Source: Protonemura montana
Lineage: Eukaryota; Arthropoda; Insecta; Plecoptera; Nemouridae
Length of the DNA stretch: 64,000 bases
NCBI GenBank assembly: GCA_947568835.1
Contig: OX387606.1
Coordinates: 310,001-374,000 of the forward strand
Direction: 5' to 3'
Every line of letters starts with the position of its first letter. Position 1 is the stretch's first letter. Positions 6,216 to 64,000 of this stretch are shown piece after piece. The translations under genes and the position numbers were made by a program. The notes beneath the pieces are model-generated. The model saw only the letters and a program-made list of their open reading frames with translations. It searched no databases and was not told the origin of the DNA.

Positions 6216-6222
6216 TTAACCT

Positions 6223-6251
6223 TATATAAAAGCCTTAAATTGTGATGTTCA
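6223..6251 (+). promoter_or_regulatory. TATA box (6223-6230) and putative initiator (A at 6251), unit 1
   Basis: TATATAAA starts 7 bases inside the element terminus, and TTCAAC lies 28 bases downstream, the usual TATA-to-start spacing of an RNA polymerase II core promoter. The pair is kept in all ten units. Start-site use is inferred. Confidence 0.6.
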
Positions 6252-7550
6252 ACTTTTTAGTTTGTGGGTATATGGCTGGGTGGGTGGCTGGCTGGGATGT
6301 AACCGGCTGCTCTACTGGTAATGGAAATTGCGAAATGCGACTGAAAACGTATGGAAATGGGCTAGAATTTTTCAGAATTAACTTTTACATTGGCAGGCGA
6401 CATTTTCACAGTGATTTAAAATCGTTTTCATGGTGAAAAGTTGCTAAATATGACGGCAAGATATATCAGAGCCAGGCGATGCAGCTCGATTTTTATAACT
6501 CTTTTAATACTCAAGTTTTTCTAATCTCGGGCTTTTCGGTTATTTCACATGCATTCGTATTAAAGTTGTTGATGTAATTGAGCGAAAACACATTCAATTG
6601 CGATCGTTTTACGTGAAAAAGAATTAATTTTGCTAATAAACTGACATCTTTGATCAATTGTTTGCTTTTTTGACACCACGGCAAGGTGTACGAAATCGTG
6701 AATGTGTCTTTTCGGCAGTGGATCATCAGGCCAAATTAAATGTCAAAATGGGTTGAAATGTCAAACTATGTACTAAAACCCATTTGTTTCTGGCGAAAAT
6801 CGTTCAAAAACGACAGGAAATGGTTATAATTTGTACATGATTTTGAAGCATTATATGAAACGCGACATTTTTAAGGTGAGTTGATGGCATACGGCGATTT
6901 GACAGGATTCCAAATGCAACTTCATATGAAACAGGTAGGTAAGGAAATAGTTTGACTCTTTACAGGCGTAAAAATTGTATTTTTATTGCACATTTTGTGT
7001 TCAATTGAATTTATTTAGTTTAATTGTGTTTCATAAAGGTATAAATATCTTGCCGATTTAAGCCGAAATTGTTCAAATACGACGCATACTATTCAACCCC
7101 AGCCTAGACAAGATTCCACCACCAATTTCAAACGGAAATGATATTTCCGACTTTTATGCAAATCACCTGTGGGTTAACTTTCCATTGCTAGCAACCTAAG
7201 CATAGAATATGGATTTCTTAACAACCAAACTATACTAAACATGTTTTTTAGAGATTATTCCGACAAATCTTGATTTTGAGTGACAGATCGCAAAAACAGG
7301 TGAAAATTCTTTTGCATCGACGTAAGAAGCCGTGAAAAAAATTATAATTTTCAAGACTGCCGTGAATTAGCAACAGGTTTTCAAACGCAAAGTGTTTAGT
7401 GAGAAAATTTTTAATTAAATTTGTGTTTTTTTTACCGCGCAAATACGTAATTGGTACCTATATCAAGGTACCTATTAATTGTTTTGAATGCGAAAAACAA
7501 TGCATTCACAATTTCTTTGGCAATTTTAAAGGCTGTCCTGAACATTTGGC

Positions 7551-8455
7551 ATAGCATAGCACAGCAAAGCATAGCATAGCATAGCAAAGCATAGCATAGC
7601 ATAGCATAGCAAAGCATAGCATAGCATAGCATAGCTTATCAAAGCATAGCATAGCAAAGCAAAGCATATCATAGCAAAGCATAGCATAGCAAAGCAAAGC
7701 AAAGCAAAGCATAGCATAGCATAGCATAGCATACCAAAGCATTGCATAGCATAGCAAAGCATAGCATAGCATAGCATAGCAAAGCATAGCATAGCAAAGC
7801 AAAGCATAGCATAGCATAGCATAGCATAGCATAGCAAAGCATTGCATAGCATAGCAAAGCATAGCATAGCATAGCATAGCAAAGCATAGCATAGCATAGC
7901 AAAGCATAGCATAGCATAGCATAGCAAAGCATAGCATAGCATAGCATAGCAAAGCATAGCAAAGCATAGCATAGCAAAGCATAGCAAAGCATAGCATAGC
8001 ATAGCATAGCAAAGCATAGCAAAGCAAAGCAAAGCATAGCATAGCATAGCATAGCATAGCATAGCATAGCATAGCAAAGCATTGCATAGCATAGCAAAGC
8101 ATAGCATAGCAAAGCATAGCATAGCATAGCATAGCATAGCATAGCATAGCATAGCAAAGCATATCATAGCAAAGCATAGCATAGCAAAGCATAGCAAAGC
8201 ATAGCAAAGCAAAGCATAGAATAGCATAGCATAGCTTATCAAAGCATAGCATAGCAAAGCAAAGCACATCATAGCAAAGCATAGCATAGCAAAGCAAAGC
8301 AAAGCATAGCAAAGCATAGCATAGCATAGCATAGCATAGCAAAGCATAGCATAGCATAGCAAAGCATAGCAAAGCAAAGCAAAGCATAGCATAGCAAAGC
8401 ATAGCATAACATAACATAGCATAGCATAGCATAGCATAGAATAACAAAGCATAGC
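7551..8455. repeat. Pentamer array ATAGC/AAAGC, 181 units (unit 1)
   Basis: The 905 bp are built almost only from two pentamers differing at one base, ATAGC and AAAGC, with rare variants (TTATC, ATTGC, ATAAC, ATAGA). The register never shifts: every insertion or deletion has been a whole pentamer. The minus strand has no stop in any frame and would read as repeats of A-M-L-C-Y. This is a property of the repeat, not evidence of a gene. In the transcript model it lies in intron 1. Confidence 0.97.
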
Positions 8456-8548
8456 AATCTGACTTTAATGCAAATCACCTGTGGGTTTAATTTCTATTGC
8501 TAGCAACCTAAGCATGGAATACGGATTTTACAGGTTTTATATCTAGAG

Positions 8549-8944
8549 CTCTATTCAGGTTATTTGAGATCAGCTGGCTGGATCCTATGCTCTATCCAGG
8601 TTATTTGAGATCAGCTGGCTGGATCCTATGTTCTATCCAGGTTATTTGAGATCAGCTGGCTGGATCCTATGCTCTATCCAGGTTATTTGAGATCAGCTGG
8701 CTGGATCCTATGCTCTATCCAGGTTATTTGAGATCAGCTGACTGGATCCTATGCTCTATCCAGGTTATTTGAGATCAGCTGACTGGATCCTATGCTCTAT
8801 CCAGGTTATTTGAGATCAGCTGGCTGGATCCTATGGTCTATCCAGGTTATTTGAGATTAGCTGGCTGGATCCTATGCTCTATCCAGGTTATTTGAGATCA
8901 GCTGGCTGGATCCTATGCTCTATCCAGGTTATTTGAGATCAGCT
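8549..8944. repeat. 41-bp minisatellite, about 10 copies (unit 1)
   Basis: The monomer runs from ATCCAGGTTATTTGAGATC through AGCTGGCTGGATCCTATGCTCT. Each monomer contains the inverted repeat ATCCAG ... CTGGAT (19-base loop), plus CAGCTG and GGATCC palindromes. Copies differ by single substitutions. Confidence 0.95.
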
Positions 8945-9019
8945 GTTAGTATCTTTACATCTATTGGGCAATGGGCTTTAATAATGCCTTCTGAATGTAC
9001 ATTAAAAGATATATTTTAA

Positions 9020-9125
9020 AAAGAAATATATCCCAGGTCTGAGGACCTAGGTAATGGACTAGGGCCATATTTGAGTAATGATCTGGCCATCGGGCATGCC
9101 CGCAGAGCATAGGGTAGCTACTGGT
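9020..9125 (+). other. Tail-like block in the unit 1 leader with a 12-base palindrome
   Basis: The stretch CCCAGGTCTGAGGACCTAGG ... GGGCCATATTTGAGTAATGATC resembles the 3' tail of the same element at about 17738-17835. It holds the perfect palindrome CGGGCATGCCCG (9091-9102) and then GCATAGGGTA. It looks like a relic of an older 3' end inside the leader. Unit 3 has the same block near 24501-24590. Confidence 0.5.
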
Positions 9126-9256
9126 GAAGAGGCAAAATGCTTATTTAAATCGAAAAGGCCAAAAACTATATTTTCTTATTCATTTTCTTAGTTCTTTGGG
9201 TGGTGGTCCCATAAAAGGCTTTAAAAAGGCACAGGTGCATATTTTGTGTTCAATTG

Positions 9257-10128
9257 TGTTTCTTTAATGAGTTTTCAGATAAATTTAGTAGTGATTTAAC
9301 GCGTAATTAATTAGTTAACCTCTAAAGACACATTATTATGATCACTGACCACAATAATTTGACTTCTGGCTTCATTCATTTACAGCGTGTAGCATCGACA
9401 GCTTCTTATGGCACGTAATTTAAATCGTCGCGCGTGGTGTTCAAGTTTGAATTTACGTGACGTCATTTTACGTAGCGGGTTGTTGGTTACCGCTTTTTGA
9501 TCGGCATCTACGCTCGGCAATTAGTCACACTCCCAAAGCTCGCCAACCGCCATTTGCTAAAGCAGTTAGTCTAGCATGAGAGTGTGGATTACCTACACGG
9601 CGAAACACTCTTGTGGGGAAGAATTTCGTCGCTATTCAAGGTAATCTTATTTCAGATTTAATTTGCATGTCACAATATCCAGTAATAGTCAACCACTGAT
9701 ATCATCAAGTGATTCAATTATTTATAGTGATTTTATAGCGTTTAGCTTCTTAATTATTAAAATTATCGTTCATCATCAAGACTGGAAAGCATACATTTTG
9801 CCCGTCTTGTGGATATTTCCATGACGTCACTTTTACGTAGCATGATGCAATCGCTCGACGCGATTCTCATCCCCCTCCCCAACCCTCCCATTCCAACAAT
9901 TAGAAGTGTGTTCAACATGGCGTCCAAGCTCGCATTCGAAGCAAATTAGCATATTTCTTTGTAAAGAAACTGAAGTGATTGTTGTGCATATTAAAGCATG
10001 CATTTAGACTGGCATGATATTTGCGTGAGGTCATTTTTACAAAACATGGCGGTTGGGTCGTGCTCGGCCACGCTCCGCTTCAGCTCGGCGACGCTAGGCA
10101 CTACTAAAGCCTCGCTTTCTTCACACAG
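9257..10128 (+). promoter_or_regulatory. RepHel leader, unit 1: untranslated exon 9386-9640, intron 9641-10128, two CRE-type sites
   Basis: An acceptor-like TTCATTTACAG ends at 9385, and a donor CAAG/GTAATC lies at 9641. The next intron would end in TTCTTCACACAG, with the RepHel ATG at the first base of the following exon. Perfect TGACGTCA palindromes, the CREB/ATF consensus, stand at 9458-9465 and 9822-9829. A short upstream frame starts at ATG 9576 (MRVWITYTAKHS...) and would end soon after the splice. The splice sites recur at matching places in all four A units. Splicing itself is inferred. Confidence 0.6.
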
Positions 10129-13100
10129 ATGCCACCCAAGAAGCGTGTAAATCTGACGTCTCGGAAGGGCGGGAAAGGTGCAACGGCAAGAGCGGAGAGC
10201 GCGGCGGCGAAGAAAAGGGCTGCTGCTGACGAGAGAGCGAGGACGAGAGAGACGGCCGAGCACGCCGACCATCAGGCAACTGCTAGCCCGTCGACGTCGA
10301 CGCTCAACGAGCAGCGTCCTTTTCTTTCCGCTATTCTCGAAGAAGCCCCGGTGAGTGTCTTAAAGCATGATTCATTATTAGAACAGGCCGCCCCCGCTTC
10401 TCTTCCAGCTTTTTATGATCAACCCTCAACAAGCCGCTATCTGCATTCCTTTTCCGACAATGTGCCGTCTGTACTCCCATCCCTTGACCAGACTCAGATC
10501 CTGGAAAATTCAGTTGGCCAGCTCCAAGAGGACAAGAACGTGCAAGTAGCAGCAAACGAACGAAGTGCCCGACTAGCGGAAAAAGCTAGAAATGCTCGCC
10601 AGCGCAGAAAGGCTGAGGATGAGGCCCAGCGTCTTCTGCGTCTGGCCCAGGTTGCCGAGTTGAAGCGTCGACGACTAGACGAAGCTTCTGAGGGACGACG
10701 CCTACAGCTTCTTGCTGAAAAGGCCGAGTCTGAGCGCCTCCGCTTGGCAAAATGTACGGAAGAACAGCGCTTTCAGCGACTGGCCCTTAAGGCACAGGCA
10801 GAGCGTCGCCGCTTGAGTGACGAAGCTGACGAACAGCGCCTTCAGCGATTGGCCCTTAGGGCAGAGTCAAAGCGTCGCCGCATAAGTGACGAAGCTGACG
10901 AACAGCGTATTCAGCGATTGGCCCTTAAGGCAGAGGCAGAGCGTCATCGCTTGAGTGTAGAAGCCAACGAACAGCGCCTTCAGCGATTGGCCCTTAAGGC
11001 AGAGTCAGAGCGTCGCCGCTTGAGTGACGAAGCTGACGAACAGCGCCTTCAGCGACTAGCCCTTATGGCAGAGTCCAAGCGTCGCCGCTTGAGTGACGAA
11101 TCTGAGGAACAGCGCCTTCAGCGATTAAGCCAGAAGGCAGTTCAAACGCAGTCTGAAAGGCAGCATGAGACTCCAGAGGCGCGCGAGAGCCGTATAGTCG
11201 CCGCGCGGGAGCAATCTCAGCAGCGTCGAAATGCCGAGACCAGGGATAAGCTCGCGGCGTTAGAAGTGGAAGTCTCTCAGCGCGCTGAGGAGGAGGCGTC
11301 TCAACGCGCCCAAGAGGCTGAACTAGAGCAAAGCCAGCGAGTCGCGGTCGAGGCTATTGACGTGGCAGATGATCAGTTTGAACCTGATCTTGCTCCAGTG
11401 AACCTTCACCCTTTCCACTTGGAGGCTGCACGGCAAGACGTCACTGACGTCGCCCTCTTTCACTGCGGCAGCATGGACGAAGTATGCAGGGTGTGCGGCG
11501 CTCTGTACTTCGCAGGAGAGCGTCCATCTGACAAAATTTACAAACTCTGTTGTCACTCGGGCAACGTAATCCTCGAGCCTCTCCTCGCGTATCCCGATTT
11601 AATGCATGCGTTGCTGACCGGAGATCATTGCGAGTCTAAGAACTTCCGCAAAAACATCCGGTCGTACAACAGTTCGCTCTCCTTCGCTTCAGTCGGAGTT
11701 AAGACGGACATCCCCCAGGGCCGTGGCACATACTGTTTTCGTGTCCATGGCAACATCCAGCATAGGATCGGCCATATGGGGCAGGCGGTGCAGAAGCCCC
11801 TCTATTCGCACCTGTACTTTCTTGACGCGGAACAAGCGAAGACGCATCGAATGGACAGGCGCCAGAATGCTAATCTGCTACCCAACCTGCTTCATGAGCT
11901 GGACGCGCTGGTTCGCGAAATAAATCCATTCGCCCAAGGGCTTAAAACGTTAGGTCAGGTGGAGGCCGACGACAGGATCCGTGCAGCTGCCGAGGGGCGA
12001 CCCGAGGTCATGGCCGAACTGCGTTTCGTGGATGACCGACGGCGGCTGTACGAAAATCCTACGGCCCACGAGGTGGCCGTTGTCTATCAGAGCGTTGACG
12101 GTGGCATGCCTCCTCTAGGACGTGATATTCGTATCCATACTCGTGGCGGATTTATTGAGCAGCTGTCTGTCCTGTCGCCCAACACGGATCCGCTCAGCTA
12201 CGTGCTGTTGTTCCCGCGTGGAGAACCCGGCTGGCAACGAGGTATGCCGCACACCAGGCAATCTAAGCACAGCGTCGTCACTCTAATGGAGTTTTATAGC
12301 CATCGACTCCACGAGCGTGTCGGCGCCTTCCATCCAGTGCTGCACGCCGGCAAGCTGACGCAGCAGTTTATGGTAGACGCCTATATCAAGGTTGAGGGCA
12401 ATCGCCTTGAGTTCGTCATCAGGAACCAGAAAACGCTGCGCGCCGAACTCTACAGTGGGCTCATGGACCACTTGGCGAACCGTGCTGAGCGGCAGGGCTG
12501 CAATGTCGGGAAGATGGTGATTCTGCCTTCCAGTTTCATCGGAAGCCCCAGGCATTGCCAGCAGCTATATCAAGACGCTATGAGTATCGTCACCAAGTTT
12601 GGAAAACCCGATCTTTTCCTTACTATGACGTGTAATCCGAAGTGGCCTGAGATTCAGACGAGCCTAGCGGCGTACGAAAGGGCAGAAGACCGACCCGATC
12701 TCACCGCGCGAGTATTCCAACTTAAACTCAAGGAGCTCATGTCTGATCTCACCAAGAGGCACGTGCTGGGCGTTCCCATGGCTCACTTCCACGTGATCGA
12801 GTTCCAAAAACGTGGACTCCCTCACGCTCACATCCTGGTAATCCTTCGCGACGAGGACAAGATCCGCACTCCCGAGGAGGTAGACGCACTTATCTGTGCC
12901 GAGTTGCCCGATCCGGTGACCGAGGAGAGACTGCACAAGGTCATCGTGTCGTCGATGATCCACGGCCCGTGCGGCGCTCGGAACATGTCCTCTGTGTGCA
13001 TGGAGGACGGAAAGTGTAAGAAGAAGTTCCCCAAGTCGTTCACAGATGTGACTGTGGTCAACGAGGGGGGTTTCACCGTCTATCGCCGTCGAGAGAGCGG

Positions 13101-15741
13101 GCAGACGCATTCCATCTCAGGAAGAGTGGTCGACAACCGAGACGTAGTGCCTTACAACAAGTACTTAAGCTCCAAGTTTGACTGCCACCTGAACATCGAG
13201 CACTGTGGATCCGCGAAGACGGTCAAGTACCTGTGCAAGTACGTGTACAAAGGTCACGACTGTGCCAGGGTCCAGCTCCGCGTCTCTGTCCCCGCGGAGG
13301 GCGATCATGAGCCACGTCCAGCGCACGGTGCCCAGCAAGAGTTGGTGTGGGACGAGGTCTCACAGTTCATCGACTCTCGCTACGTGAGTCCCCAAGAGGC
13401 TGCGTGGAGAATTTTCGGATTTGAAATGCACGAAAAGTCGCACACTATCATCCGTTTGGCGATCCACCTCGAGGGTGACCACATGGTCACGTTCCGTCCT
13501 GGAGACGAGGAAGCCGCAGCAGAACGCGGCAGGGCTGCGCTGACTACGCTGACGGCATGGTTTGCGCTGAATAGTAGCAACCCGGCGGCACGGCAGTACA
13601 AGTACATCGACATCCCGTACCACTTCCGTTTCGAGGGCAAAGCGTGGAAGCCACGAAAGCGAGGTGCCGGCTCCATCATCAGCCGAATGTACTCCGTGAC
13701 GCCCCGGCAAATCGAGCGATACCATCTTCGTCTCCTTTTGCTACACGTCGCCGGCGCCACCTCATTCGAGGACGTTCGCACGTTCCAGGGTAGGGTTTAC
13801 GCGACCTTCAAGGAAGCTGCCATCGCACGCAACCTGCTAATGGACGACGACGAGTGGCAGAAATGTCTGCAGGAGGCGGTTGCTATAAAGATGCCAAACG
13901 AACTTCGTCAGCTGTTTGCCATCATTTGCGCGTTCTGTCAGCCTCTTGACCCGCTGTCTCTATGGGAGCGTTTCAAGGGCGATTTCTGCGAAGATTTCGC
14001 CCGAGAACACGACCCCATCGAGGCAGAACAGTTGGCCCTGAATTCCATCCAGTCCGTCCTTGCCCTACACCGCCTGACCAACGCCGAAATCGGTTTGCCG
14101 GCGCCTCGAGTGCCAGTCATCGTTGCTGTCGACGAGCAGTTCGACCAGACCGCCGAAAGGGAAGAGGCCGAGGAGAACTTGGTGAAGCTCAACGGCAGGC
14201 AGCGCGTGGCATTCGACGCGGTGATGGCAGCAATCGACGACCCGAACGCCGAGCAGAGGTGCTTCTACCTGGACGGCCCGGGCGGCAGCGGGAAGACCTT
14301 CCTATACAACACCCTCATCAGCACGCTGCGAGCCCGAGGCGAGCGAGCCGTGGCCGTCGCGTGGACGGGCATTGCGGCGACGTTACTGAAGGGAGGGAGG
14401 ACCTGCCACTCGCGATTTCGATTGCCTGTTCCGATTGTGGAAAACAGCACGTCTGGCGTGAAGCCCAACTCCGCCGAGGGCGCTTCGCTGAGGGCGGCCA
14501 AGGTCATCATCTTGGATGAAGGACCCATGGCGCCTCTGCTGGCCCTGAACGTGATCGAGCGGACGCTAAGAGACGTGACCAACGATGAGCGTCCGTTCGG
14601 CGGAAAGGTGATCGTTATCGGCGGGGATTTTAGGCAGTGCCTCCCAGTCGTTCGAAATGGCAACCGAACGACCATTGTCGAGCAATGCATTAAGCGTGGC
14701 GCGCTTTGGTCGTTGTTCCGCACCCTCGAGCTGCGCGCGAACATGCGCGCCAACCCAGGCGAAGTAGAGTTCGTCGAGTGGCTCTTGCGTGTCGGAAACG
14801 GCGAGATTTTGAATGACTGCCACCTCCCGGATGACACCATCGCATTACCTGTCCAATGCGTCGTGGACTGCGTCATTGACGCCGTCTTCGGCACGAGCAT
14901 TAGTGCTGCCGAGATGGCCGTGATGCAAGACCATGCCATCCTCTGCCCGAAGAACGTGGAGTCTTTGAACATCAATGACAACGTTCTTGAGCGCCTCGAA
15001 GGTGACGTGTTCGAATACTGCAGCGCCGACACTGTCGATGTCAGTGAAGGCGAAGATGGCGACGTTTTGGCTACCGATTATCCCGTAGAATATCTAAATT
15101 CATTAACGCCATCCGGGATGCCACCGCACAAGCTTCGTCTGAAAGTTCATGCAATCGTGATGCTCATGAGGAACGTCAACGTGAGAGCCGGCCTTTGCAA
15201 TGGGACTCGACTCAGCGTTGTTGCACTCCACGAGCACGTGATCGACTGCAGGATCATCGGAGGGCGCTGTGCGGGACGACGCACTTTCCTATGTAGAGTC
15301 AACCTAACTCCCTCGGACATTGGCATGCCCTTTACGATGACAAGGCGCCAGTTTCCGATCCGTCTGGCATTCGCCATGACCATCAATAAAGCCCAGGGTC
15401 AATCTTTAAAGAGGGTGGGAATTCATTTAGAAAAACCAGTATTCGGACACGGTCAGCTATACGTGGCGCTTTCTCGGGCTCGCTCTTTGGACTCGATCTT
15501 CGTGGCAGTCGCCGGTAACGAGGCGCAGGGCAAGTTGATCGTCTCGAGCAACACCACCTTCACCAAGAACATCGTGTACCAGGAGGTGCTCGAGATTCAT
15601 GCGCCGAACCACCAGGCAGCGGATCCTTCCTCGCGTAGTGGCTATCAAGAGGCTGACCAGCAGGCCCTTGAGCAGTCGCTTAGTCAACTCGCTGTATCGG
15701 ATGCGGATGAAGAAGTTCCAATGGACACCTCCTCCTCCTAA
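10129..15741 (+). CDS. Helitron Rep-helicase (RepHel), copy 1, 1870 aa, intact
   Basis: Rolling-circle transposase: the Rep part nicks and joins single-stranded DNA at the element ends and the helicase unwinds it, in the nucleus. Domains in order: basic N-terminus with PPKKRV (possible nuclear signal); a charged coiled-coil region (about 140-430) holding five 23-residue repeats of type QRLALKAESERRRLSDEADE; a Cys/His cluster (HCGSMDEVCRVCG, 445-457, and CCHSG near 474); Rep motif FLTMTCNPKW (from 829); HUH motif GLPHAHIL (H899, H901); two catalytic tyrosines in KYLCKY (Y1034, Y1038); a PIF1-type helicase with Walker A GPGGSGKT (1383-1390), Walker B DE (1463-1464), GGDFRQ (1498-1503), LRANMRA (1535) and the C-terminal INKAQGQS and VALSRARS motifs. 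All key residues are present. No apurinic endonuclease domain is seen, unlike Helentrons. The ATG lies directly after a splice acceptor. Confidence 0.95.
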   Translation: MPPKKRVNLTSRKGGKGATARAESAAAKKRAAADERARTRETAEHADHQATASPSTSTLNEQRPFLSAILEEAPVSVLKHDSLLEQAAPASLPAFYDQPSTSRYLHSFSDNVPSVLPSLDQTQILENSVGQLQEDKNVQVAANERSARLAEKARNARQRRKAEDEAQRLLRLAQVAELKRRRLDEASEGRRLQLLAEKAESERLRLAKCTEEQRFQRLALKAQAERRRLSDEADEQRLQRLALRAESKRRRISDEADEQRIQRLALKAEAERHRLSVEANEQRLQRLALKAESERRRLSDEADEQRLQRLALMAESKRRRLSDESEEQRLQRLSQKAVQTQSERQHETPEARESRIVAAREQSQQRRNAETRDKLAALEVEVSQRAEEEASQRAQEAELEQSQRVAVEAIDVADDQFEPDLAPVNLHPFHLEAARQDVTDVALFHCGSMDEVCRVCGALYFAGERPSDKIYKLCCHSGNVILEPLLAYPDLMHALLTGDHCESKNFRKNIRSYNSSLSFASVGVKTDIPQGRGTYCFRVHGNIQHRIGHMGQAVQKPLYSHLYFLDAEQAKTHRMDRRQNANLLPNLLHELDALVREINPFAQGLKTLGQVEADDRIRAAAEGRPEVMAELRFVDDRRRLYENPTAHEVAVVYQSVDGGMPPLGRDIRIHTRGGFIEQLSVLSPNTDPLSYVLLFPRGEPGWQRGMPHTRQSKHSVVTLMEFYSHRLHERVGAFHPVLHAGKLTQQFMVDAYIKVEGNRLEFVIRNQKTLRAELYSGLMDHLANRAERQGCNVGKMVILPSSFIGSPRHCQQLYQDAMSIVTKFGKPDLFLTMTCNPKWPEIQTSLAAYERAEDRPDLTARVFQLKLKELMSDLTKRHVLGVPMAHFHVIEFQKRGLPHAHILVILRDEDKIRTPEEVDALICAELPDPVTEERLHKVIVSSMIHGPCGARNMSSVCMEDGKCKKKFPKSFTDVTVVNEGGFTVYRRRESGQTHSISGRVVDNRDVVPYNKYLSSKFDCHLNIEHCGSAKTVKYLCKYVYKGHDCARVQLRVSVPAEGDHEPRPAHGAQQELVWDEVSQFIDSRYVSPQEAAWRIFGFEMHEKSHTIIRLAIHLEGDHMVTFRPGDEEAAAERGRAALTTLTAWFALNSSNPAARQYKYIDIPYHFRFEGKAWKPRKRGAGSIISRMYSVTPRQIERYHLRLLLLHVAGATSFEDVRTFQGRVYATFKEAAIARNLLMDDDEWQKCLQEAVAIKMPNELRQLFAIICAFCQPLDPLSLWERFKGDFCEDFAREHDPIEAEQLALNSIQSVLALHRLTNAEIGLPAPRVPVIVAVDEQFDQTAEREEAEENLVKLNGRQRVAFDAVMAAIDDPNAEQRCFYLDGPGGSGKTFLYNTLISTLRARGERAVAVAWTGIAATLLKGGRTCHSRFRLPVPIVENSTSGVKPNSAEGASLRAAKVIILDEGPMAPLLALNVIERTLRDVTNDERPFGGKVIVIGGDFRQCLPVVRNGNRTTIVEQCIKRGALWSLFRTLELRANMRANPGEVEFVEWLLRVGNGEILNDCHLPDDTIALPVQCVVDCVIDAVFGTSISAAEMAVMQDHAILCPKNVESLNINDNVLERLEGDVFEYCSADTVDVSEGEDGDVLATDYPVEYLNSLTPSGMPPHKLRLKVHAIVMLMRNVNVRAGLCNGTRLSVVALHEHVIDCRIIGGRCAGRRTFLCRVNLTPSDIGMPFTMTRRQFPIRLAFAMTINKAQGQSLKRVGIHLEKPVFGHGQLYVALSRARSLDSIFVAVAGNEAQGKLIVSSNTTFTKNIVYQEVLEIHAPNHQAADPSSRSGYQEADQQALEQSLSQLAVSDADEEVPMDTSSS

Positions 15742-16083
15742 ATCCTATCATTGTTCTATCCCTTACATTTGCAATAGCGGTAACATTTCCTAGATAAATT
15801 TAAATTCAGTAAGGCTAGGTAGGGCAGACCAGGAACCGTGACTAGCACGGCAGGTAGCAACCCAATTCCCATATATTTCACCATGCTGACACGCTTTTCT
15901 GCTGCAGGTATAAAGCACCGGACGCCGCATAGCCCTTTAACTTCACGACCATTGCGCTCGCATGTGGACACTCTAACGGAACTGCTCCTCCCAGAGCTAG
16001 ACAATTATGCATGTAAATTAATTGATAGATTATATTGTACATACATTTAGTAAAGTAGTTACTTCTAACTAATAGTATTAGAA

Positions 16084-16520: not shown

Positions 16521-16570
16521 GTTTGCAATTTTTTTAAGGTCACAATCTTACTTTCGTGTCGGTCTTTTTA

Positions 16571-17954: not shown

Positions 17955-17961
17955 GTTACCT

Positions 17962-52560: not shown

Positions 52561-52567
52561 TTAACCT

Positions 52568-53477: not shown

Positions 53478-53484
53478 TTAACCT

Positions 53485-54746: not shown

Positions 54747-57716
54747 TATGGTTTTCTATGGAATTGTATAATATTGTACAGCACTTTATGGTGTTCTTTG
54801 GAAGTCTATGGTACAAGGTGTTATTGTATGATATTGTATGGCATTCTATGTTATTCTATGGTATTCTATGGTGTTCTATGGTATACATTGATATTCTAAG
54901 GTATTCTATGGTATTCTATGGTATTCAATGGAGTTCTATGGAGTTCTATGGTATTCTATGGAGTTCTATGATATTCTATGGAGTTATATGATATTCTATG
55001 GTGTTCTATGGTATTCTTTGGTATTCTATGTATTCTATTGTATTCTATGGTATTCTATGGTATTCAATGGTGTTCTATGGTATTGTATGGTATTGTATGG
55101 AGTTTTATGGTAATCTATGGTATTCTTTTGAGTTCTATGGTATTCTATGGTATTCAATGGTATTCTATGGTATTCTATGGGGTGCTATGGTATTCTATGG
55201 TATTCTATAGAGTGCTATGGTATTCTATGGTATTGTTTGGTATTCTATGGTATTCTATCGATATCTTTTGTATGATATGATATTGTATGGTATTGTATGG
55301 AGTTCTATGGTATTCTATGGTATTGTTTGGTATTCTATGGTGTTCTATGGTATTGTATGGTATTCTATGGTATTCTATCGTATTCTATGGTATTCTATGG
55401 AGTGCCCTGGTATGTTATGATATTCTATGGTATACTATGGTATTCTATGGTGTTCTATGGTGTTCTTGGGTGTGCTATGGTATTCTATGGTATTCTATTG
55501 TGTTCTATAGTACTCTTTGGTGTTCTATGGTATTCTATGGTATTCTATGATATTTTATGGTATTCTATGGTATTCTATGGTATTTTATGGTATTCTATGG
55601 TATTCTATGGAGTTCGAAGGTATTCTATGATATTATATGGTATTCTATGAAGTGCTATGGTATTCTATGATATTCTATGGTATTGTATGGTATTTTATGG
55701 TATGGTATGGTATTTAATGGTATTCTATGGTATTCTTTAGAGTTATATGGTATTCTATGGTATTCAATGGTATTCTATGGTATATTATAATATTCTACTG
55801 AGTTCTATGGTATTATATGGAGTGAATAGTATTCTATGGTGTTCTATGGTGTTCTATGGTGTTTTATGGTATTCTATGGTATTCTATGGTGTTTTATGGT
55901 GTTCTTTGGTGTGCTTTGGTATTCTATGGTATTCTATTGTATTCTATGGTTTTCTTTGGTGTTCTATGGTATTCTATGGTATTCTATGGTATGTTATGGT
56001 ATTCTATGGTATTCTATGGTATTTTATGGTATTCTATGGTATTCTATGGAGTTCTATGATATTCTATGATATTGTATGGTATTCTATGGTATTCTTTGGT
56101 ATTTTATGGTATTCTATGGTATTCTATGGTATTCTATGGTATTCTATGGAGTTCTATGGTATTCTATGATATTGTATGGTATTCTATGGTATTCTATGGT
56201 ATTCTTTGGTATTCTATGGAGTTCTATAGTATTCTATTATATACTATGGTATTCTATAGAGTTCTTTGGTATTCTATGATATTCTATGGTATTCTATGGT
56301 GTTCTATGGTATTCAATGGAGTTCTTTAATATTATATGGAGTTAATGGTATTCTATGGTGTTCTATGGTGTTCTATGGTGTTTTATGGTATTCTATTGTG
56401 TTCTATAATGTTCTATGGTATTCTATGGTATTCTATGGTATTCTATGTTATTCTATAATATTCTATGAAGTTCTATGGTATTCTATGATATTGTATGGTA
56501 TTGTATGGAACTGTATGGTATTTTATGGTATTATATGGTATTATATGGTATTTAATGGTATTATATGGAGTTATATGGTATTCTATGATATTGTATGGTA
56601 TTCTATGGTCTTCTACGGTATTCTATGGTATTCTATGGTATTATTTTGTATTATATTATATTATATGGTATTCTATGGTATTCTATGGTATTCAATGGTA
56701 TTCTATGGTAATTTATAATATTCTACGGAATTCTATGGTATTTTATGGAGTTAATGGTATTCTATGGTGTTCTATGGTGTTCTATGGTGTTTTATGGTAT
56801 TCTATTGTGTTCTATGGTATTCTTTGGTATACTATGGTATTCTATGGTGTTCCATGGTGTTCTTTGGTGTTCTATGGTATTCTATGGTATTCTATGGTAT
56901 TGTATGGTATTCGATGGTATTCTATGGTATTTTATGGTATTCTATGGTATTCTATGGAGTTCTATGGTGTTCTATGATATTATATGGTATTCTATGGTAT
57001 TCTATGGTATTCTATGTTGTCCTATGGTATTCTATGGAGTTCTATAGTATTATATGATATAGTATGGTATTCTTTGATATTGTATGGTATTCTATGGTAG
57101 TGTATGGTATTCTATGGTATTCTTTGGTATTCTATGGTATTCTTTGATATGCTTTGGTATTTTATGGTATTGTTTGGTTTTGTTTGGAAGTGTATGGTAT
57201 TAAATGTTTTTGGATGGTATTCTATAAAATTTTGAGGGTTTCTCTGAAATAATATGGTTCTCTATGGTATTTGGAGGTGTTCGATTGTATTATTTGGTAG
57301 TCTATGATGTTGTATGGAATGGTATGGTATTCCATGGGTTCCATGGGTTTCTATATTATTTTATGGTATTGTTTGGTATCCTCTGGTATTTTATGAGTTT
57401 CTATGGATTACAATGGTATTATAAGGTACTTTATGGTGTTGTTAGGAATTGAATTGTATTCGATGATATAGTTTGCCATTCTTAGGTTTTCTATGGTATT
57501 GTATGGTATTGTATGGTATTGTATGGTATTTTAGGTACTCTTTGGTATTGTATGATATTGTTTAGTATTTAACGGGTTTGTTTGGTATTCTATGGTATTT
57601 TATGGTATTGTATTGTATTGAATGGAATTTTATAGTTTTCTTAGGGTTTCTTTGGTTTTGAATGGTTTTTTATGGTATTTTATGATATTCTATGGTATTG
57701 CATGGTATTGCATGGC
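54747..57716. repeat. Decamer array TATGGTATTC (unit 9), about 3 kb
   Basis: The largest array in the window. The sub-block with GAGTTAATGG or GAGTGAATAG followed by TATTCTATGGTGTTC appears near 55812, 56338 and 56747, marking higher-order repeats of roughly 400-530 bp. Confidence 0.95.
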
Positions 57717-57804
57717 TGTGGTCCTTTTAAGAGGCTTTAGATAGGGCATCAAAGAAAACTCGAGACACGTTTAAACCAAAATGCCCACTCCCTCAAAATC
57801 GTAA

Positions 57805-57832
57805 GGTGCCGTTAGGCATCGGGTACTGCTAG
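57805..57832 (+). other. Helitron 3' terminus of unit 9: hairpin plus CTAG
   Basis: GGCATC-arm form although this is a B unit, CTAG at 57829-57832. Confidence 0.8.
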
Positions 57833-57839
57833 TTAACCT

Positions 57840-57868
57840 TATATAAAAGCTTTAAATCGCGATGTTCA
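57840..57868 (+). promoter_or_regulatory. TATA box and initiator-like site, unit 10
   Basis: TATATAAA at 57840-57847, with the A of TTCAAC at 57868. Candidate promoter of the fourth RepHel gene. Confidence 0.6.
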
Positions 57869-58616
57869 ACTTTTTAGTTTGTGGGTAGGTAGGTGGATGG
57901 CTGGGATGTAACCGACCGCTCTACTGGTTATGGAAATTGTGAAATGCGACTCAAAACGTACGGAAATGGGCTAGAATTTTTCAGTATTAACTTTTCCATT
58001 GGCAGGCGACATTTTCACAGCGATTTAAAATCGTTTTCATGGTGAAAAGCTGCTAAATATGACGGCAAGATATCTCAGAGCCAGGTGATGCAGCTCGATT
58101 TTTATAACTCTTTTAATACTCAAGTTTTTCTAGCCTGGAGCTCCATGGTGAGTTTTCATGCATTCATATTAAATTTGTTGATGTAATTGAGCGAAAACAC
58201 ATTTAATTTCGATCGTTTTACGTGAAAAAGAATTAATTTTGCTAATAAACTGACAGCTTTGATCAATTGTTTGCTTTTTTGTCACCACCGCAAGGTGTAC
58301 GAAATCGTGAATGTATCTTTTCAGCAGTGAATCTTTAGGCCAAATTAAACGTCAAAATGGGTTGAAATGTCAAACTATCTATTAAAACCCCTTTGTTTCA
58401 TGCGAAAATCGGTCAAAAATGACAGGAAATGGTTATAATTTGTACATGATTTCAAAGCACTATATGAAACGCGACATTTTTAAGGTGAGTTGATGGGATA
58501 CGGCGATTTGAACAGGATTTTAAATTTAACTTTATATGAAACAGGTGAGTAAGGAAAAAGTTTGACTCTTTACAGGCGTAAAAATTGTATTTTTATTGCA
58601 CATTTTGCGTTCAATT

Positions 58617-59499
58617 GTGTTTCTTTAATGAGTTTGCAGATATATTTAGTAATGATTTAACCCGTAATTAATTAGCTAACCTCTAAAGACACATTATTAT
58701 GATCAATGACCGCAATAATTTGACTTCTGGCTTCATTCATTTACAGCGTGTAGCATCGACAGATTCCTATGGCACGTAATTTAAATCGTCGCGCGTGGTG
58801 TAAAAGTTTGAATTTCCGTGACGTCATTTTACGTAGCGGGATGTTGGCTTAGCGCTTTTTGATCGGCATCCACGCTCGGCAATTAGTCACACTCCCAACG
58901 CTCGCCAACCGCCATTTGCTAAAGCAGTTAGTCTAGCATGAGAGTGCGGATTACCTACACGGCGAAACACTCTTGTGGGGAAGAATTCTGTCGCTATTCA
59001 AGGTAATCTACTTTCATATTTAATTTGCATGTCACAATATCCACTGATAGTCAACCCCTAATATCATCAAGTGATTCAATTATTTATAGTGATTTTATAG
59101 CGTTTAGCTTCTAAATTATTATTAAAATTATCGTTCATCATCAAGACTGGAAAGCATACATTTTGCCCGTCTTGTGGATATTTCCATGACGTCACTTTTA
59201 CGTAACATGATGCAATCGCTCGACGCGATTCTCATCCCCCTCCCCAACCCTCCCATGCCCACCGTTCCAACAATTAGAAGTGTGTTCAGCATGGCATCCA
59301 AGCTCGCAATCGAAGCAAATTAGCATATTTCTTTGTAAAGAAACTGAAGTGATTGTTGCGCATATTAAAGCATACATTTAGCCTGGCATGATATTTGCAT
59401 GAGGTCATTTTTACAAAACATGGCGGTTGGTTCGTGCTCAGCCACGCTCCGCTTCAGCTCGGCGACGCTAGGCACTAAAACCTCGCTTTCTTCACACAG
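58617..59499 (+). promoter_or_regulatory. RepHel leader, unit 10: exon 58747-59002, intron 59003-59499, CRE-type sites
   Basis: TGACGTCA at 58819-58826 and 59187-59194. First-intron donors at 58485 and 58545 both read GTGAGT. The second untranslated exon is 256 bases. Confidence 0.6.
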
Positions 59500-62400
59500 A
59501 TGCCACCTAAGAAGCGTGCAAATCTGACGTCTCGGAAAGGCGGGAAAGGTGCAACGGCACGAGCAGAGAGCGCGGCGGCGAAGAAAAGGGCTGCTGCTGA
59601 CGAGAGAGCGAGGACGAGAGAGACGGCCGAGCACGCCGACCATCAGGCGACTGCTAGCCCGTCGACGTCGACGCTCGATGAGCAGCGTCCTTTTCTTTCC
59701 GCTGTTCTCAGAGAAGCCCCGGTAAGTGTCTTTCAGCATGATTTATTATTAGAACAGGCCGCCCCCGCTTTTCTTCCAGCTTTTTATGATCAACCCTCTA
59801 CAAGCCACTATATGCATTCCTTTCCCGTCAATGTGCCATCGTTACTCCCATCCCTTGACCAAACTCAGATCCTGGAAAATTCAGTTGGCCAGCTCCAAGA
59901 GGACAAGAACGTGCAAGTAACAGCAAACGAACGGAGTGCCCGACTAGCGGAAAAAGCTAGAAATGCTCGCCAGCGCAGAAAGGCTGAGGATGAGGCCCAA
60001 CGTCTTCTGCGTCTGGCTCAGGTTGCCGAGTCGAAGCGTCGACGACTAGACGAAGCTTCTGAGGGACGACGCCTACAGCTTCTTGCTGAAAAGGCCGAGT
60101 CTGAGCGCCTCCGCTTGGCAAAATGTACGGAAGATCAGCGCCTTCAGCGACTGGCCCTTAAGGCAGAGGCAGAGCGTCGCCGCTTGAGTGACGAAGCTGA
60201 CCAACAGCGCCTTCAGCGACTGGCCCTTAAGGCAGAGTCAAAGCGTCGCCACTTGAGTGACGAAGCTGACGAACAGCGCCTTCAGCGACTAGCCCTTATG
60301 GCAGAGTCCAAGCGTCGCCGCTTGAGTGACGAAGCTGACAAACAGCGCCTTCAGCGACTAGCCCTTATGGCAGAGTTCAAGCGTCGCCACTTGAGTGACG
60401 AATCTGAGGAACAGCGCCTTCAGCGATTAAGCCAGAAGGCAGTTCAAACGCAGTGTGAAAGGCAGCATGAGACTCCAGAGGCGCGCGAGAGCCGATTAGT
60501 CGCCGCGCGGGAGCGATCTCAGCAGCGTCGAAATGCCGAGACCAGGGATAAGCTCGCGGCGTTCGAAGTGGAAGTCTCTCAGCGCGCTGAGGAGGAGGCA
60601 TCTCAACGCGCCCAAGAGGCTGAACTAGAGCAAAGCCAGCGAGTCGCGGTCGAGGCTATTGACGTGGCAGACGATCAGTTCGAACCTGATCTTGCTCCAG
60701 TAAACCTTCATCCTTTCCACTTGGAGGCTGCACGGCAAGACGTCGCTGACGTCGCCCTCTTTCACTGCGGCAGCATGGACGAAGTATGCAGGGTGTGCGG
60801 CGCTCTGTACTTCGCAGGAGAGCGTCCTTCTGACAAAATTTATAAACTCTGTTGTCACTCGGGCAACGTAATCATTGAGCCTCTCCTCGCGTATCCCGAT
60901 TTAATGCATGCGTTGCTGACCGGAGATCATTGCGAGTCTAAGAACTTCCGCAAAAACATCCGGTCGTACAACAGTTCGCTCTCCTTCGCTTCAGTCGGAG
61001 TTAAGACGGACATCCCCCAGGGCCGAGGCACATACTGTTTTCGTGTCCATGGCAACATCCAGCATAGGATCGGCCATATGGGGCAGGCGGTGCAGAAGCC
61101 CCTCTATTCGCACCTGTACTTTCTTGACGCGGAACAAGCGAAGACGCATCGAATGGACAGGCGCCAGAATGCTAATCTGCCACCCAACCTGCTTCATGAG
61201 CTGGACGCGCTGGTTCGCGAAATAAATCCTTTTGCCCAAGGGCTTAAAACGTTAGGTCAGGTGGAGGCCGACGACAGGATCCGTGCAGCTGCCGAGGGGC
61301 GACCCGAGGTCATGGCCGAACTGCGTTTCGTGGATGATCGACGGCGGCTGTACGAAAATCCTACGGCCCACGAGGTGGCCGTTGTCTATCAGAGCGTTGA
61401 CGGTGGCATGCCTCCTCTAGGACGTGATATTCGTATCCATACTCGCGGCGGATTTATTGAGCAGCTGTCTGTCCTGTCGCCCAACACGGATCCGCTCAGC
61501 TACGTGCTGTTGTTCCCGCGTGGAGAACCCGGCTGGCAACGAGGTATGCCGCACACCAGGCAATCTAAGCACAGCGTCGTCACTCTAATGGAGTTTTATA
61601 GCCATCGACTCCACGAGCGTGTCGGCGCCTTCCATCCAGTGCTGCACGCCGGCAAGCTGACGCAGCAGTTTATGGTAGACGCCTATATCAAGGTTGAGGG
61701 CAATCGCCTTGAGTTCGTCATCAGGAACCAGAAAACGCTGCGCGCCGAACTCTACAGTGGGCTCATGGACCACTTGGCGAACCGTGCTGAGCGGCAGGGC
61801 TGCAATGTCGGGAAGATGGTGATTCTGCCTTCCAGTTTCATCGGAAGCCCCAGGCATTGCCAGCAGCTATATCAAGACGCTATGAGTATCGTCACCAAGT
61901 TTGGAAAACCCGATCTTTTCCTTACTATGACGTGTAATCCGAAGTGGCCTGAGATTCAGACGAGCCTAGCGGCGTACGAAAGGGCAGAAGACCGACCCGA
62001 TCTCACCGCGCGAGTATTCCAACTTAAACTCAAGGAGCTCATGTCTGATCTCACCAAGAGGCACGTGCTGGGCGTTCCCATGGCTCACTTCCACGTGATC
62101 GAGTTCCAAAAACGTGGACTCCCTCACGCTCACATCCTGGTAATCCTTCGCGACGAGGACAAGATCCGCACTCCCGAGGAGGTAGACGCACTTATCTGTG
62201 CCGAGTTGCCCGATCCGGTGACCGAGGAGAGACTGCACAAGGTCATCGTGTCGTCGATGATCCACGGCCCGTGCGGCGCTCGGAACATGCGCTCTGTGTG
62301 CATGGAGGACGGAAAGTGTAAGAAGAAGTTCCCCAAGTCGTTCACAGATGTGACTGTGGTCAACGAGGGGGGTTTCACCGTCTATCGCCGTCGAGAGAGC

Positions 62401-64000
62401 GGGCAGACGCATACCATCTCAGGAAGAGTGGTCGACAACCGAGACGTAGTGCCTTACAACAAGTACTTAAGCTCCAAGTTTGACTGCCACCTGAACATCG
62501 AGCACTGTGGATCCGCGAAGACGGTCAAGTACCTGTGCAAGTACGTGTACAAAGGTCACGACTGTGCCAGGGTCCAGCTCCGCGTCTCTGTCCCCGCGGA
62601 GGGCGATCATGAGCCACGTCCAGCGCACGGTGCCCAGCAAGAGTTGGTGTGGGACGAGGTCTCACAGTTCATCGACTCTCGCTACGTGAGTCCCCAAGAG
62701 GCTGCGTGGAGAATTTTCGGATTTGAAATGCACGAAAAGTCGCACACTATCATCCGTTTGGCGATCCACCTCGAGGGTGACCACATGGTCACGTTCCGTC
62801 CTGGAGACGAGGAAGCCGCAGCAGAACGCGGCAGGGCTGCGCTGACTACGCTGACGGCATGGTTTGCGCTGAATAGTAGCAACCCGGCGGCACGGCAGTA
62901 CAAGTACATCGACATCCCGTACCACTTCCGTTTCGAGGGCAAAGCGTGGAAGCCACGAAAGCGAGGTGCCGGCTCCATCATCAGCCGAATGTACTCCGTG
63001 ACGCCCCGGCAGATCGAGCGATACCATCTTCGTCTCCTTTTGCTACACGTCGCCGGCGCCACCTCATTCGAGGACGTGCGCACGTTCCAGGGTAGGGTTT
63101 ACGCTACCTTCAAGGAAGCTGCCATCGCACGCAACCTGCTAATGGACGACGACGAGTGGCAGAAATGTCTGCAGGAGGCGGTTGCTATAAAGATGCCAAA
63201 CGAACTTCGTCAGCTGTTTGCCATCATTTGCGCGTTCTGTCAGCCTCTTGACCCGCTGTCTCTATGGGAGCGTTTCAAGGGCGATTTCTGCGAAGATTTC
63301 GCCCGAGAACACGACCCCATCGAGGCAGAACAGTTGGCCCTGAATTCCATCCAGTCCGTCCTTGCCCTACACCGCCTGACCAACGCCGAAATCGGTTTGC
63401 CGGCGCCTCGAGTGCCAATCATCGTTGCTGTCGACGAGCAGTTCGACCAGACCGCCGAAAGGGAAGAGGCCGAGGAGAACTTGGTGAAGCTCAACGGCAG
63501 ACAGCGCGTGGCATTCGACGCGGTGATGGCAGCAATCGACGACCCGAACGCCGAGCAGAGGTGCTTCTACCTGGACGGCCCGGGCGGCAGCGGGAAGACC
63601 TTCCTATACAACACCCTCATCAGCACGCTGCGAGCCCGAGGCGAGCGAGCCGTGGCCGTCGCGTGGACGGGCATTGCGGCGACGTTACTGAAGGGAGGGA
63701 GGACCTGCCACTCGCGATTTCGATTGCCTGTTCCGATTGTGGAAAACAGCACGTCTGGCGTGAAGCCCAACTCCGCCGAGGGCGCTTCGCTGAGGGCGGC
63801 CAAGGTCATCATCTTGGATGAAGGACCCATGGCGCCTCTGCTGGCCCTGAACGTGATCGAGCGGACGCTAAGAGACGTGACAAACGATGAGCGTCCGTTC
63901 GGCGGAAAGGTGATCGTTATCGGCGGGGATTTTAGGCAGTGCCTCCCAGTCGTTCGAAATGGCAACCGAACGACCATAGTCGAGCAATGCATTAAGCGTG
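59500..64000 (+). CDS. Helitron Rep-helicase (RepHel), copy 4, C-terminus beyond the window (at least 1500 aa)
   Basis: The frame opens at ATG 59500 and runs to the last base. Its length to that point equals that of copy 3 exactly, so there is no net insertion or deletion. Four 23-residue repeats are present, with their own variants (KRRHLSDE twice). The Rep motifs, both tyrosines, Walker A and B and GGDFRQC are all encoded before the edge; the last helicase motifs are outside. Private changes include Leu to Pro in NANLPPNLL and Ser to Arg in RNMRSVCM. The N-terminal segment is the most diverged part (for example VSVFQHDL, YMHSFPVNVPS). I followed the N-terminal and repeat regions codon by codon and the rest by comparison with copy 3. 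Confidence 0.9.
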   Translation, partial: MPPKKRANLTSRKGGKGATARAESAAAKKRAAADERARTRETAEHADHQATASPSTSTLDEQRPFLSAVLREAPVSVFQHDLLLEQAAPAFLPAFYDQPSTSHYMHSFPVNVPSLLPSLDQTQILENSVGQLQEDKNVQVTANERSARLAEKARNARQRRKAEDEAQRLLRLAQVAESKRRRLDEASEGRRLQLLAEKAESERLRLAKCTEDQRLQRLALKAEAERRRLSDEADQQRLQRLALKAESKRRHLSDEADEQRLQRLALMAESKRRRLSDEADKQRLQRLALMAEFKRRHLSDESEEQRLQRLSQKAVQTQCERQHETPEARESRLVAARERSQQRRNAETRDKLAAFEVEVSQRAEEEASQRAQEAELEQSQRVAVEAIDVADDQFEPDLAPVNLHPFHLEAARQDVADVALFHCGSMDEVCRVCGALYFAGERPSDKIYKLCCHSGNVIIEPLLAYPDLMHALLTGDHCESKNFRKNIRSYNSSLSFASVGVKTDIPQGRGTYCFRVHGNIQHRIGHMGQAVQKPLYSHLYFLDAEQAKTHRMDRRQNANLPPNLLHELDALVREINPFAQGLKTLGQVEADDRIRAAAEGRPEVMAELRFVDDRRRLYENPTAHEVAVVYQSVDGGMPPLGRDIRIHTRGGFIEQLSVLSPNTDPLSYVLLFPRGEPGWQRGMPHTRQSKHSVVTLMEFYSHRLHERVGAFHPVLHAGKLTQQFMVDAYIKVEGNRLEFVIRNQKTLRAELYSGLMDHLANRAERQGCNVGKMVILPSSFIGSPRHCQQLYQDAMSIVTKFGKPDLFLTMTCNPKWPEIQTSLAAYERAEDRPDLTARVFQLKLKELMSDLTKRHVLGVPMAHFHVIEFQKRGLPHAHILVILRDEDKIRTPEEVDALICAELPDPVTEERLHKVIVSSMIHGPCGARNMRSVCMEDGKCKKKFPKSFTDVTVVNEGGFTVYRRRESGQTHTISGRVVDNRDVVPYNKYLSSKFDCHLNIEHCGSAKTVKYLCKYVYKGHDCARVQLRVSVPAEGDHEPRPAHGAQQELVWDEVSQFIDSRYVSPQEAAWRIFGFEMHEKSHTIIRLAIHLEGDHMVTFRPGDEEAAAERGRAALTTLTAWFALNSSNPAARQYKYIDIPYHFRFEGKAWKPRKRGAGSIISRMYSVTPRQIERYHLRLLLLHVAGATSFEDVRTFQGRVYATFKEAAIARNLLMDDDEWQKCLQEAVAIKMPNELRQLFAIICAFCQPLDPLSLWERFKGDFCEDFAREHDPIEAEQLALNSIQSVLALHRLTNAEIGLPAPRVPIIVAVDEQFDQTAEREEAEENLVKLNGRQRVAFDAVMAAIDDPNAEQRCFYLDGPGGSGKTFLYNTLISTLRARGERAVAVAWTGIAATLLKGGRTCHSRFRLPVPIVENSTSGVKPNSAEGASLRAAKVIILDEGPMAPLLALNVIERTLRDVTNDERPFGGKVIVIGGDFRQCLPVVRNGNRTTIVEQCIKR

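What the first reader, a model, noticed from the sequence alone, without database searches (positions are those of the whole stretch)
6216..64000. Ten Helitron units fused head to tail with no spacer, mixing autonomous and non-autonomous types
All nine junctions read hairpin, CTAG, then immediately the 5' terminus (TTAACC; GTTACC once). All units point the same way, and units with and without RepHel alternate as A B A B B A B C B A. Helitrons are rolling-circle elements, and failure to stop at the 3' hairpin is known to give tandem copies. A chain joining different subfamilies is harder to explain by simple read-through: it needs either template switching between related circles, repeated insertion at a unit's terminus, or later unequal exchange. 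This is the main structural discovery in the window.
Basis: partly seen in the sequence, partly recalled or inferred. Interest (0 to 1): 0.92.

Follow-up and report, generated by a model that had tools for sequence, protein, structure and literature searches.

The report
Mixed head-to-tail Helitron transposon chains
In this genome many copies of one family of rolling-circle transposons sit fused end to end in chains that mix copies with and without the transposase gene, probably because single elements are preferentially joined onto the ends of copies already present.

Summary
All nine junctions read CTAG directly followed by TTAACC (GTTACC once), same orientation. Past the window edge the chain ends at window coordinate 69304: 11 units in one A|T host site. 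The four RepHel units keep 1825-1870 aa ORFs (dN/dS 0.20-0.34).

It is not an isolated oddity. The genome has 644 exact CTAG|TTAACC... junctions, against 296 free 5' ends preceded by A and 14 preceded by T. About 170 of 183 RepHel-type 3' ends run straight into another unit; a 925-kb contig holds 56 of them.

In a sample of 119 units, neighbours are no more alike than shuffled units, and near-identical units sit beside different neighbours. That argues against simple read-through. I favour joining of single elements onto the left terminus of resident copies, with later recombination and block duplication. A directional 5'/3' signal (outer ends of a chain recurring together elsewhere) keeps recombination-based joining alive, and pre-assembled mixed circles are possible. 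Where chains grow is unresolved.

Tandem Helitrons, and unlike Helitrons directly side by side, are known; the scale and the intact autonomous members make this a new variant of a known kind.

The parts
6216..17954 (+). U1, autonomous (A) unit, 11739 bp; preceded by host A
   Evidence: ends; ORF
10129..15741 (+). U1 RepHel ORF, 1870 aa: STPR repeats, Helitron_like_N (HUH), PIF1 helicase
7549..8456 (.). (GCATA)n satellite inside U1
8548..8945 (.). 41-bp tandem repeat inside U1
17942..17972 (+). junction U1|U2, the variant CTAG|GTTACC
17955..20295 (+). U2, non-autonomous, C-type 5' region with B satellite body, 2341 bp
20296..33165 (+). U3, autonomous unit, 12870 bp
25604..31081 (+). U3 RepHel ORF, 1825 aa
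33166..36165 (+). U4, non-autonomous B unit, 3000 bp; 2997/3000 identical, no gaps, to a unit of another array at G000:C4:401106-404105
36166..39188 (+). U5, non-autonomous B unit, 3023 bp
39189..48613 (+). U6, autonomous unit, 9425 bp
40857..46400 (+). U6 RepHel ORF, 1847 aa
48614..52560 (+). U7, non-autonomous B unit, 3947 bp
52561..53477 (+). U8, short non-autonomous C unit, 917 bp
53478..57832 (+). U9, non-autonomous B unit, 4355 bp
57833..64000 (+). U10, autonomous unit, cut by the window edge; true end 66869; RepHel ORF 59500-65043, 1847 aa

Best explanation
This is a family of A|T-targeting Helitrons with one RepHel-coding form and several non-autonomous forms that share its 5' terminal region of about 500 bp and nearly the last 28 bases. 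The family lives largely as heterotypic head-to-tail chains. Most likely each unit arrives singly, as a transposon circle (inferred), and is joined precisely to the left terminus of a copy already present. At a free end the A|T in front of TTAACC is the target. At an internal junction, CTAG|TTAACC has the form of the joint of a transposon circle, which the HUH transposase must cut anyway. Transposase bound at resident left ends would thus make them integration hotspots. Secondarily, copies recombine and blocks are duplicated, notably in the long chains of C7 and C8. Shown: exact junctions, A|T host sites around the sampled chains, heterotypic neighbours, intact RepHel genes in the window's four A units. 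Inferred: circles, transposase-directed targeting, and the site of growth.
For: 644 exact junctions against 296 A-preceded and 14 T-preceded free ends. Insertions at random A|T sites would give almost no such hits (my estimate from base composition, about 0.02 expected). Only 2 of 4 matches fit insertion at the two inner A|T sites of the left end, and the reversed control string also gave 4 matches, so the joint is at the terminus itself. Of 46 sampled first ends, 43 follow A; two others follow CTAG where the preceding unit lies outside the fetched stretch. T follows 29 of 29 located last 3' ends. The closest relative (first 500 bp) of 85 of 102 units in arrays is in another array, 13 elsewhere in the same array, 4 next door. 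Near-identical units have different neighbours: U4 and C4:401106-404105 (2997/3000), an isolated 940-bp unit and the last unit of a pair (1 mismatch), and a 1088-bp unit at position 3 of 6 and another at 1 of 2 (1 mismatch). A unit's own 5'/3' combination recurs elsewhere in 15 of 92 array units at 0.6%, against 2.4% of random pairs. RepHel is intact in 4 of 4 and under purifying selection.
Against: Growth at the 5' end predicts older units toward the 3' end. The gradient is weak with the first 500 bp (tau 0.175, p 0.049) and absent with full-length identity (tau 0.057, p 0.36). Units at least 99.5% identical to a unit of another array are not enriched at the first position (3 of 29 first, 6 of 44 middle, 2 of 20 last, 2 of 9 single). 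A directional signal is not predicted: the 5' part of an upstream unit with the 3' part of a downstream unit of the same array recurs elsewhere more often than the reverse (34 against 17 of 173 pairs at 1.5%, shuffle p 0.02; 17 against 6 at 1%, p 0.029; 7 against 2 at 0.6%, p 0.125), and first 5' with last 3' recurs for 8 of 19 complete arrays at 1.5% against 3.6 in shuffled orders (p 0.002; 4 of 19 at 1%, p 0.116; 1 of 19 at 0.6%, p 0.318). Units are mosaics, which insertion alone does not produce. C7 and C8 share duplicated blocks. No circle, read or second haplotype was seen.
Confidence: 0.45

Rival explanations
1. Mixed chains are assembled before integration. Circles of different elements are joined at their CTAG|T joints into composite circles, which insert once into one A|T site.
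For: A before and T after the sampled chains; no age gradient with full-length identity.
Against: Composite donors should leave an excess of the same neighbour pair at unrelated loci. None was shared at 0.6% or 1%, though shuffled orders also gave only 0.12 and 0.57 on average, so this has little power; at 2% there were 17 against a shuffled mean of 28.2. Only 73 adjacent pairs were examined, of at least 644 junctions.
Confidence: 0.18
2. Homologous recombination builds or reshapes the chains: transposon circles integrate into resident copies through shared sequence, giving exact tandem copies without transposase targeting, or units of a chain recombine with one another.
For: It explains same orientation, exact joints and preference for existing copies. 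In 68 short units mean r2 falls from 0.56 within 25 bp to 0.02 beyond 700 bp (rho -0.47 against -0.003 +/- 0.023 shuffled), and the nearest 5' and nearest 3' relatives overlap for only 40 of 101 units. First 5' with last 3' of an array recurs elsewhere (8 of 19 at 1.5%, p 0.002), as expected if a resident's outer ends are kept.
Against: Circle integration should also make 3' of the upstream unit recur with 5' of the next one; that is at the random level (1, 4 and 9 of 63 pairs at 0.6, 1 and 1.5%, random pairs 2.4, 6.2 and 13.2%; shuffle p 0.92, 0.91, 0.96). A unit's own combination is commoner (15, 21 and 28 of 92). The first-last signal is significant only at the loosest threshold. Crossovers inside the first 400 or last 350 bp would escape these tests.
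Confidence: 0.22
3. Rolling-circle read-through: replication fails to stop at the weak 3' hairpin and lays down several copies.
For: The hairpin is weak. A few neighbours are near-identical: two 1080-bp units with identical 5' ends in C1:3720047, and a duplicated 1055/1083 pair in C2:6432700.
Against: 4 of 73 adjacent pairs under 2%; adjacency no better than shuffled. Sampled chain ends captured no host sequence: 29 of 29 end at CTAG|T.
Confidence: 0.05
4. Unequal exchange and segmental duplication of older pairs built the chains.
For: A block with a 375-bp spacer is repeated in C1:281380-297000; C3:1523100 and C3:1549830 have the same 12-base flank and identical unit 5' ends; equal-scoring blocks in C7 and C8.
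Against: It cannot create the first heterotypic junctions, and the other sampled chains have their own host flanks with no excess of shared neighbour pairs.
Confidence: 0.1

Closest known systems
Two adjacent head-to-tail maize Helitrons, Du et al. 2008 (PMC2267711, passages seen)
   Same: CTAG joined directly to the next 5' terminus; dissimilar neighbours; the authors propose consecutive insertion, either at the A|T made by host A and element T or at the GT behind the 3' end.
   Different: One pair of gene-fragment carriers. Here hundreds of junctions, a confirmed chain of 11 units, with intact RepHel members.
Tandem and adjacent Helitrons in bat, silkworm and maize, as summarised in PMC4067079 (passages seen; the underlying papers not seen)
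   Same: Tandem arrays in Myotis lucifugus and Bombyx mori; [quoted passage not shown]
   Different: Arrays are attributed there to bypass of the termination signal. Here sampled neighbours are mostly not each other's closest copies.
CentHel arrays of rice (Xiong et al. 2016; seen only as cited in PMC10095026 and PMC5148889)
   Same: Many tandem Helitron-derived copies.
   Different: Described in those passages as truncated, tandemly arrayed elements; here complete units with both termini, autonomous ones included.
Non-canonical Helitrons of Fusarium and Metarhizium (PMC5148889, passages seen)
   Same: Three copies in tandem in M. acridum, read as insertion into another Helitron's 5' end twice or as rolling-circle product; self-insertion is discussed.
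   Different: A single small case.
Helraiser circles (PMC4778049, passages seen)
   Same: The circle joint is CTAG directly on the 5' TC; circles are transposition-competent; A|T strongly preferred.
   Different: Reconstructed bat element in cultured cells; 5' end is TC, not TT.

Membership tests
Helitron (canonical) | RepHel protein: HUH nuclease with two tyrosines plus PIF1-type helicase | tested here: met
   PF14214 (E 5e-61 to 6e-61) and PF05970 (E 1.4e-55 to 1.9e-56) in the three ORFs scanned. HFH in the Helitron_like_N region, YLCKYVYKGHD and GPGGSGKT in all four ORFs; the meaning of these motifs is recalled.
Helitron (canonical) | Insertion between A and T | tested here: met
   43 of 46 first ends after A, 29 of 29 last ends before T; 296 A against 14 T and 0 C genome-wide.
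Helitron (canonical) | 3' end CTRR | tested here: met
   CTAG at the nine window junctions and the 644 matched by pattern.
Helitron (canonical) | 5' end TC | tested here: not met
   The 5' end is TTAACC. A departure from the canonical terminus; placement rests on RepHel, CTAG and A|T.
[quoted passage not shown]
   4-6 bp stem in three of four ends, none clearly better than shuffles (z -0.48 to -1.07).
Helentron / Helitron2 | TT insertion site and an endonuclease domain in the ORF | tested here: not met
   A|T sites; no endonuclease domain in the Pfam tables of three ORFs. Defining features from PMC4067079 passages and recall.
Rolling-circle read-through concatemers | Neighbouring units near-identical | tested here: not met
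   4 of 73 sampled pairs under 2%; shuffle p 0.50.

The most novel reading that the evidence does not exclude
The left terminus of a resident Helitron is the dominant integration hotspot for its own family, through the same transposase chemistry that opens the circle joint. Elements therefore accumulate as growing mixed chains, up to hundreds of kilobases, in which most autonomous copies are held, and a chain behaves as a transposon-built satellite array.
Probability: 0.37. Interest if true: 0.75.

Novelty: new variant of a known kind. Interest (0 to 1): 0.6.

Why it matters
How tandem Helitrons arise has been argued from few cases: consecutive insertion or replication past the 3' end. This genome offers hundreds of junctions, and the sampled ones join dissimilar neighbours, so the models can be separated statistically; the sample already speaks against simple read-through. 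If resident left ends are preferred targets, Helitrons have an insertion habit that concentrates them in arrays. It would also be a route to composite elements and new satellites.

Tried and rejected
Read-through of one circle as the main cause was rejected for most sampled junctions. Random A|T insertion was rejected by numbers. Circle integration by homologous recombination was tested by 5'/3' swap combinations. A first version gave 1 of 63 and 7 of 63 in the two directions and 6 of 220 non-adjacent pairs; the fuller tests gave mixed results, told under the rivals. Moving of whole blocks was tested by shared neighbour pairs (low power at tight thresholds) and by a search with U8 and its two junctions: the best full-length match elsewhere is 93% (which scored 40 of 1430 candidates). 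Helentron membership was rejected. An attempt to name the host failed: in the 120 listed of 767 RepHel matches identity is 42-52% and the species named are animals; the organism is not identified. A telomere link for the C7 chain was considered and not pursued; the first 8 kb of C7 hold no unit ends and one match (267 bp, 87%) to the fetched C4 region, outside the chains.

Caveats. The 119 units (46 arrays) come from contigs C1-C4, taken from the first-listed places and partly chosen for arrays. One search uses all 119, of which 17 have no located 3' end. Adjacent pairs have a lower median distance (4.5%) than non-adjacent ones in the same array (5.8%) or between arrays (7.0%), but the adjacent mean equals that of shuffled orders. 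The '85 of 102' includes up to 14 units in apparent segmental duplications (arrays 5-8, 30, 31). One search dropped 12 divergent of 80 short units; searches used the 101 complete units of at least 800 bp. One search is an earlier run on 66 units. 1140 left ends were found at up to one mismatch; 954 exact ones are classified by the preceding base, and G other than CTAG was not counted.

Full report
What is there. The window holds a head-to-tail chain of Helitron units from 6216 onward. The nine junctions given are exact. Following the contig, the chain ends at window coordinate 69304 after 11 units: U1 11739 bp, U2 2341, U3 12870, U4 3000, U5 3023, U6 9425, U7 3947, U8 917, U9 4355, U10 9037, U11 2435. 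Host sequence before it ends in A and host sequence after it begins with T, so the chain occupies one A|T site.

The parts. The four long units carry single ORFs of 1870, 1825, 1847 and 1847 aa. The first three, scanned against Pfam, hold STPR repeats, Helitron_like_N and PIF1 helicase. Pairwise dS is 0.025-0.031 and dN/dS 0.20-0.34 over the six pairs, so the genes have been kept by selection. Tandem repeats: (GCATA)n and 41-bp arrays in U1 and U3, a 69-bp repeat in the coding region of the four long units overlapping the STPR part, and a 10-bp satellite in U2, U4, U5, U7 and U9; none of that kind was found in U8, and U11 lies outside that scan but aligns with U2. Against U1, the other kinds of unit match over about the first 500 bp at 82-94% identity, and the 3' ends agree nearly base for base over the last 28 or so. 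U2 and U11 join a C-type 5' region to a B body.

Genome-wide. The 5' terminus occurs 1140 times at up to one mismatch in 258 Mb. With exact matching, 644 are preceded by CTAG, 296 by A, 14 by T and none by C. Insertion at the two inner A|T sites of the terminus fits 2 of 4 pattern matches, with 4 matches to the control. A-type 3' ends number 183 and 170 are found followed by TTAACC. Of the 100 exact A-type ends listed, 56 are on contig C7 (925,000 bp), from 18.7 to 919.9 kb, in +, -, + blocks of 22, 20 and 14; the others listed are on C4 (20), C2 (8), C8 (8), C5 (7) and C3 (1). On C7, 51 of the 56 run exactly into a next unit; one of these was read directly. C7 and C8 share equal-scoring blocks, which may be duplications or alternative haplotypes.

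Sample. I assembled 119 units in 46 arrays from C1-C4. Of 46 first ends, 43 follow A; two follow CTAG where the previous unit lies outside the fetched stretch, and one degenerate copy follows another G. Of 29 located last 3' ends, 29 precede T.

Tests of mechanism. (a) Adjacent units differ by a median 4.5% in their first 500 bp (73 pairs; 4 under 2%); non-adjacent units of the same array 5.8%, units of different arrays 7.0%. The adjacent mean, 0.0650, equals that of shuffled orders, 0.0649 (p 0.50). (b) The nearest relative is the neighbour for 4, elsewhere in the same array for 13, and in another array for 85 of 102 units. (c) Neighbour pairs shared between unrelated arrays: 0 at 0.6%, 0 at 1%, 17 at 2%, against shuffled means of 0.12, 0.57 and 28.2; there is no excess, but little power at the tight thresholds. 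(d) The same unit recurs with different neighbours: U4 against C4:401106-404105, 2997 of 3000; 1 mismatch in 1088 and 1 in 940 for two further pairs. (e) Age order: tau 0.175, p 0.049 with 500 bp; tau 0.057, p 0.36 with full length. (f) Recombination: in 68 short units r2 decays from 0.56 to 0.02 within the element. A unit's own 5' and 3' parts are found together elsewhere in 15 of 92 array units at 0.6%, random pairs 2.4%, neighbour swaps 1 and 2 of 63. (g) Direction: an upstream 5' part with a downstream 3' part of the same array recurs elsewhere for 34 of 173 pairs at 1.5%, the reverse for 17 (p 0.02 for the difference); first 5' with last 3' for 8 of 19 complete arrays, shuffled mean 3.6 (p 0.002), weaker at 1% (p 0.116) and 0.6% (p 0.318).

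Reading. (a), (b) and (d) fit units that arrive one by one from a common pool, and contradict read-through as the rule; (c) agrees but is weak. The extreme excess at the terminus needs targeting or homology. The simplest target is the transposase-bound left end: in Helraiser the circle joint CTAG|TC is made and re-used (PMC4778049, passages), and a chain junction has the same form. (e) leaves open whether growth is at the outer 5' end, as in one of the two orders proposed by Du et al. (PMC2267711, passages), or at any junction. (f) shows that copies also recombine. (g) points to recombination that spans chains, either joining by homology that keeps a resident's outer ends, or collapse of chains into single units that then spread; the missing rise of the opposite neighbour swap speaks against the first form. 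Probabilities are in the fields above.

Novelty. Searches listed papers; I saw passages of PMC2267711, PMC4067079, PMC4778049, PMC5876387, PMC5148889, PMC13286980, PMC7492417 and PMC10095026. Where these speak of tandem Helitrons they mention pairs, a triple, arrays ascribed to bypassed termination, truncated centromeric arrays, and distantly related Helitrons side by side. I saw no account of chains mixing intact autonomous and several non-autonomous forms on this scale. Xiong 2016, Pritham and Feschotte 2007 and Thomas 2014 (bat) were not seen, so this is not proof of absence.

Noticed in passing
G000:C7, 18.7-920 kb; C8, about 158-804 kb: Long stretches with RepHel-type unit ends or unit matches throughout, with orientation blocks on C7 and blocks shared between C7 and C8; 56 of the 100 listed A-type 3' ends (183 in all) are on C7 alone.
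   Followed up: partly
10762-11140, 26237-26461, 41490-41783, 60136-60426: A 69-bp tandem repeat in the RepHel coding region, overlapping the STPR repeats; copy number differs between units, as does protein length.
   Followed up: partly
L001 (C1:282880 region): The chain's left flank ends TTAACCTTATA directly before TTAACC: an 11-base repeat of the terminus, either slippage or the trace of an insertion at an inner A|T.
   Followed up: no
C1:281380-297000: A two-unit block with a 375-bp spacer is repeated, which looks like segmental duplication of a chain.
   Followed up: partly
17955: U2 alone among the window's units begins GTTACC instead of TTAACC; it cannot be told whether this arose before or after U1 was joined.
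   Followed up: no
4350-5052: 86-bp tandem repeat, about 8 copies, in the host flank left of the chain.
   Followed up: no
1-6215 and L034-L038: Reverse-transcriptase-like and other retrotransposon-like reading frames around the chains, judged by eye.
   Followed up: no
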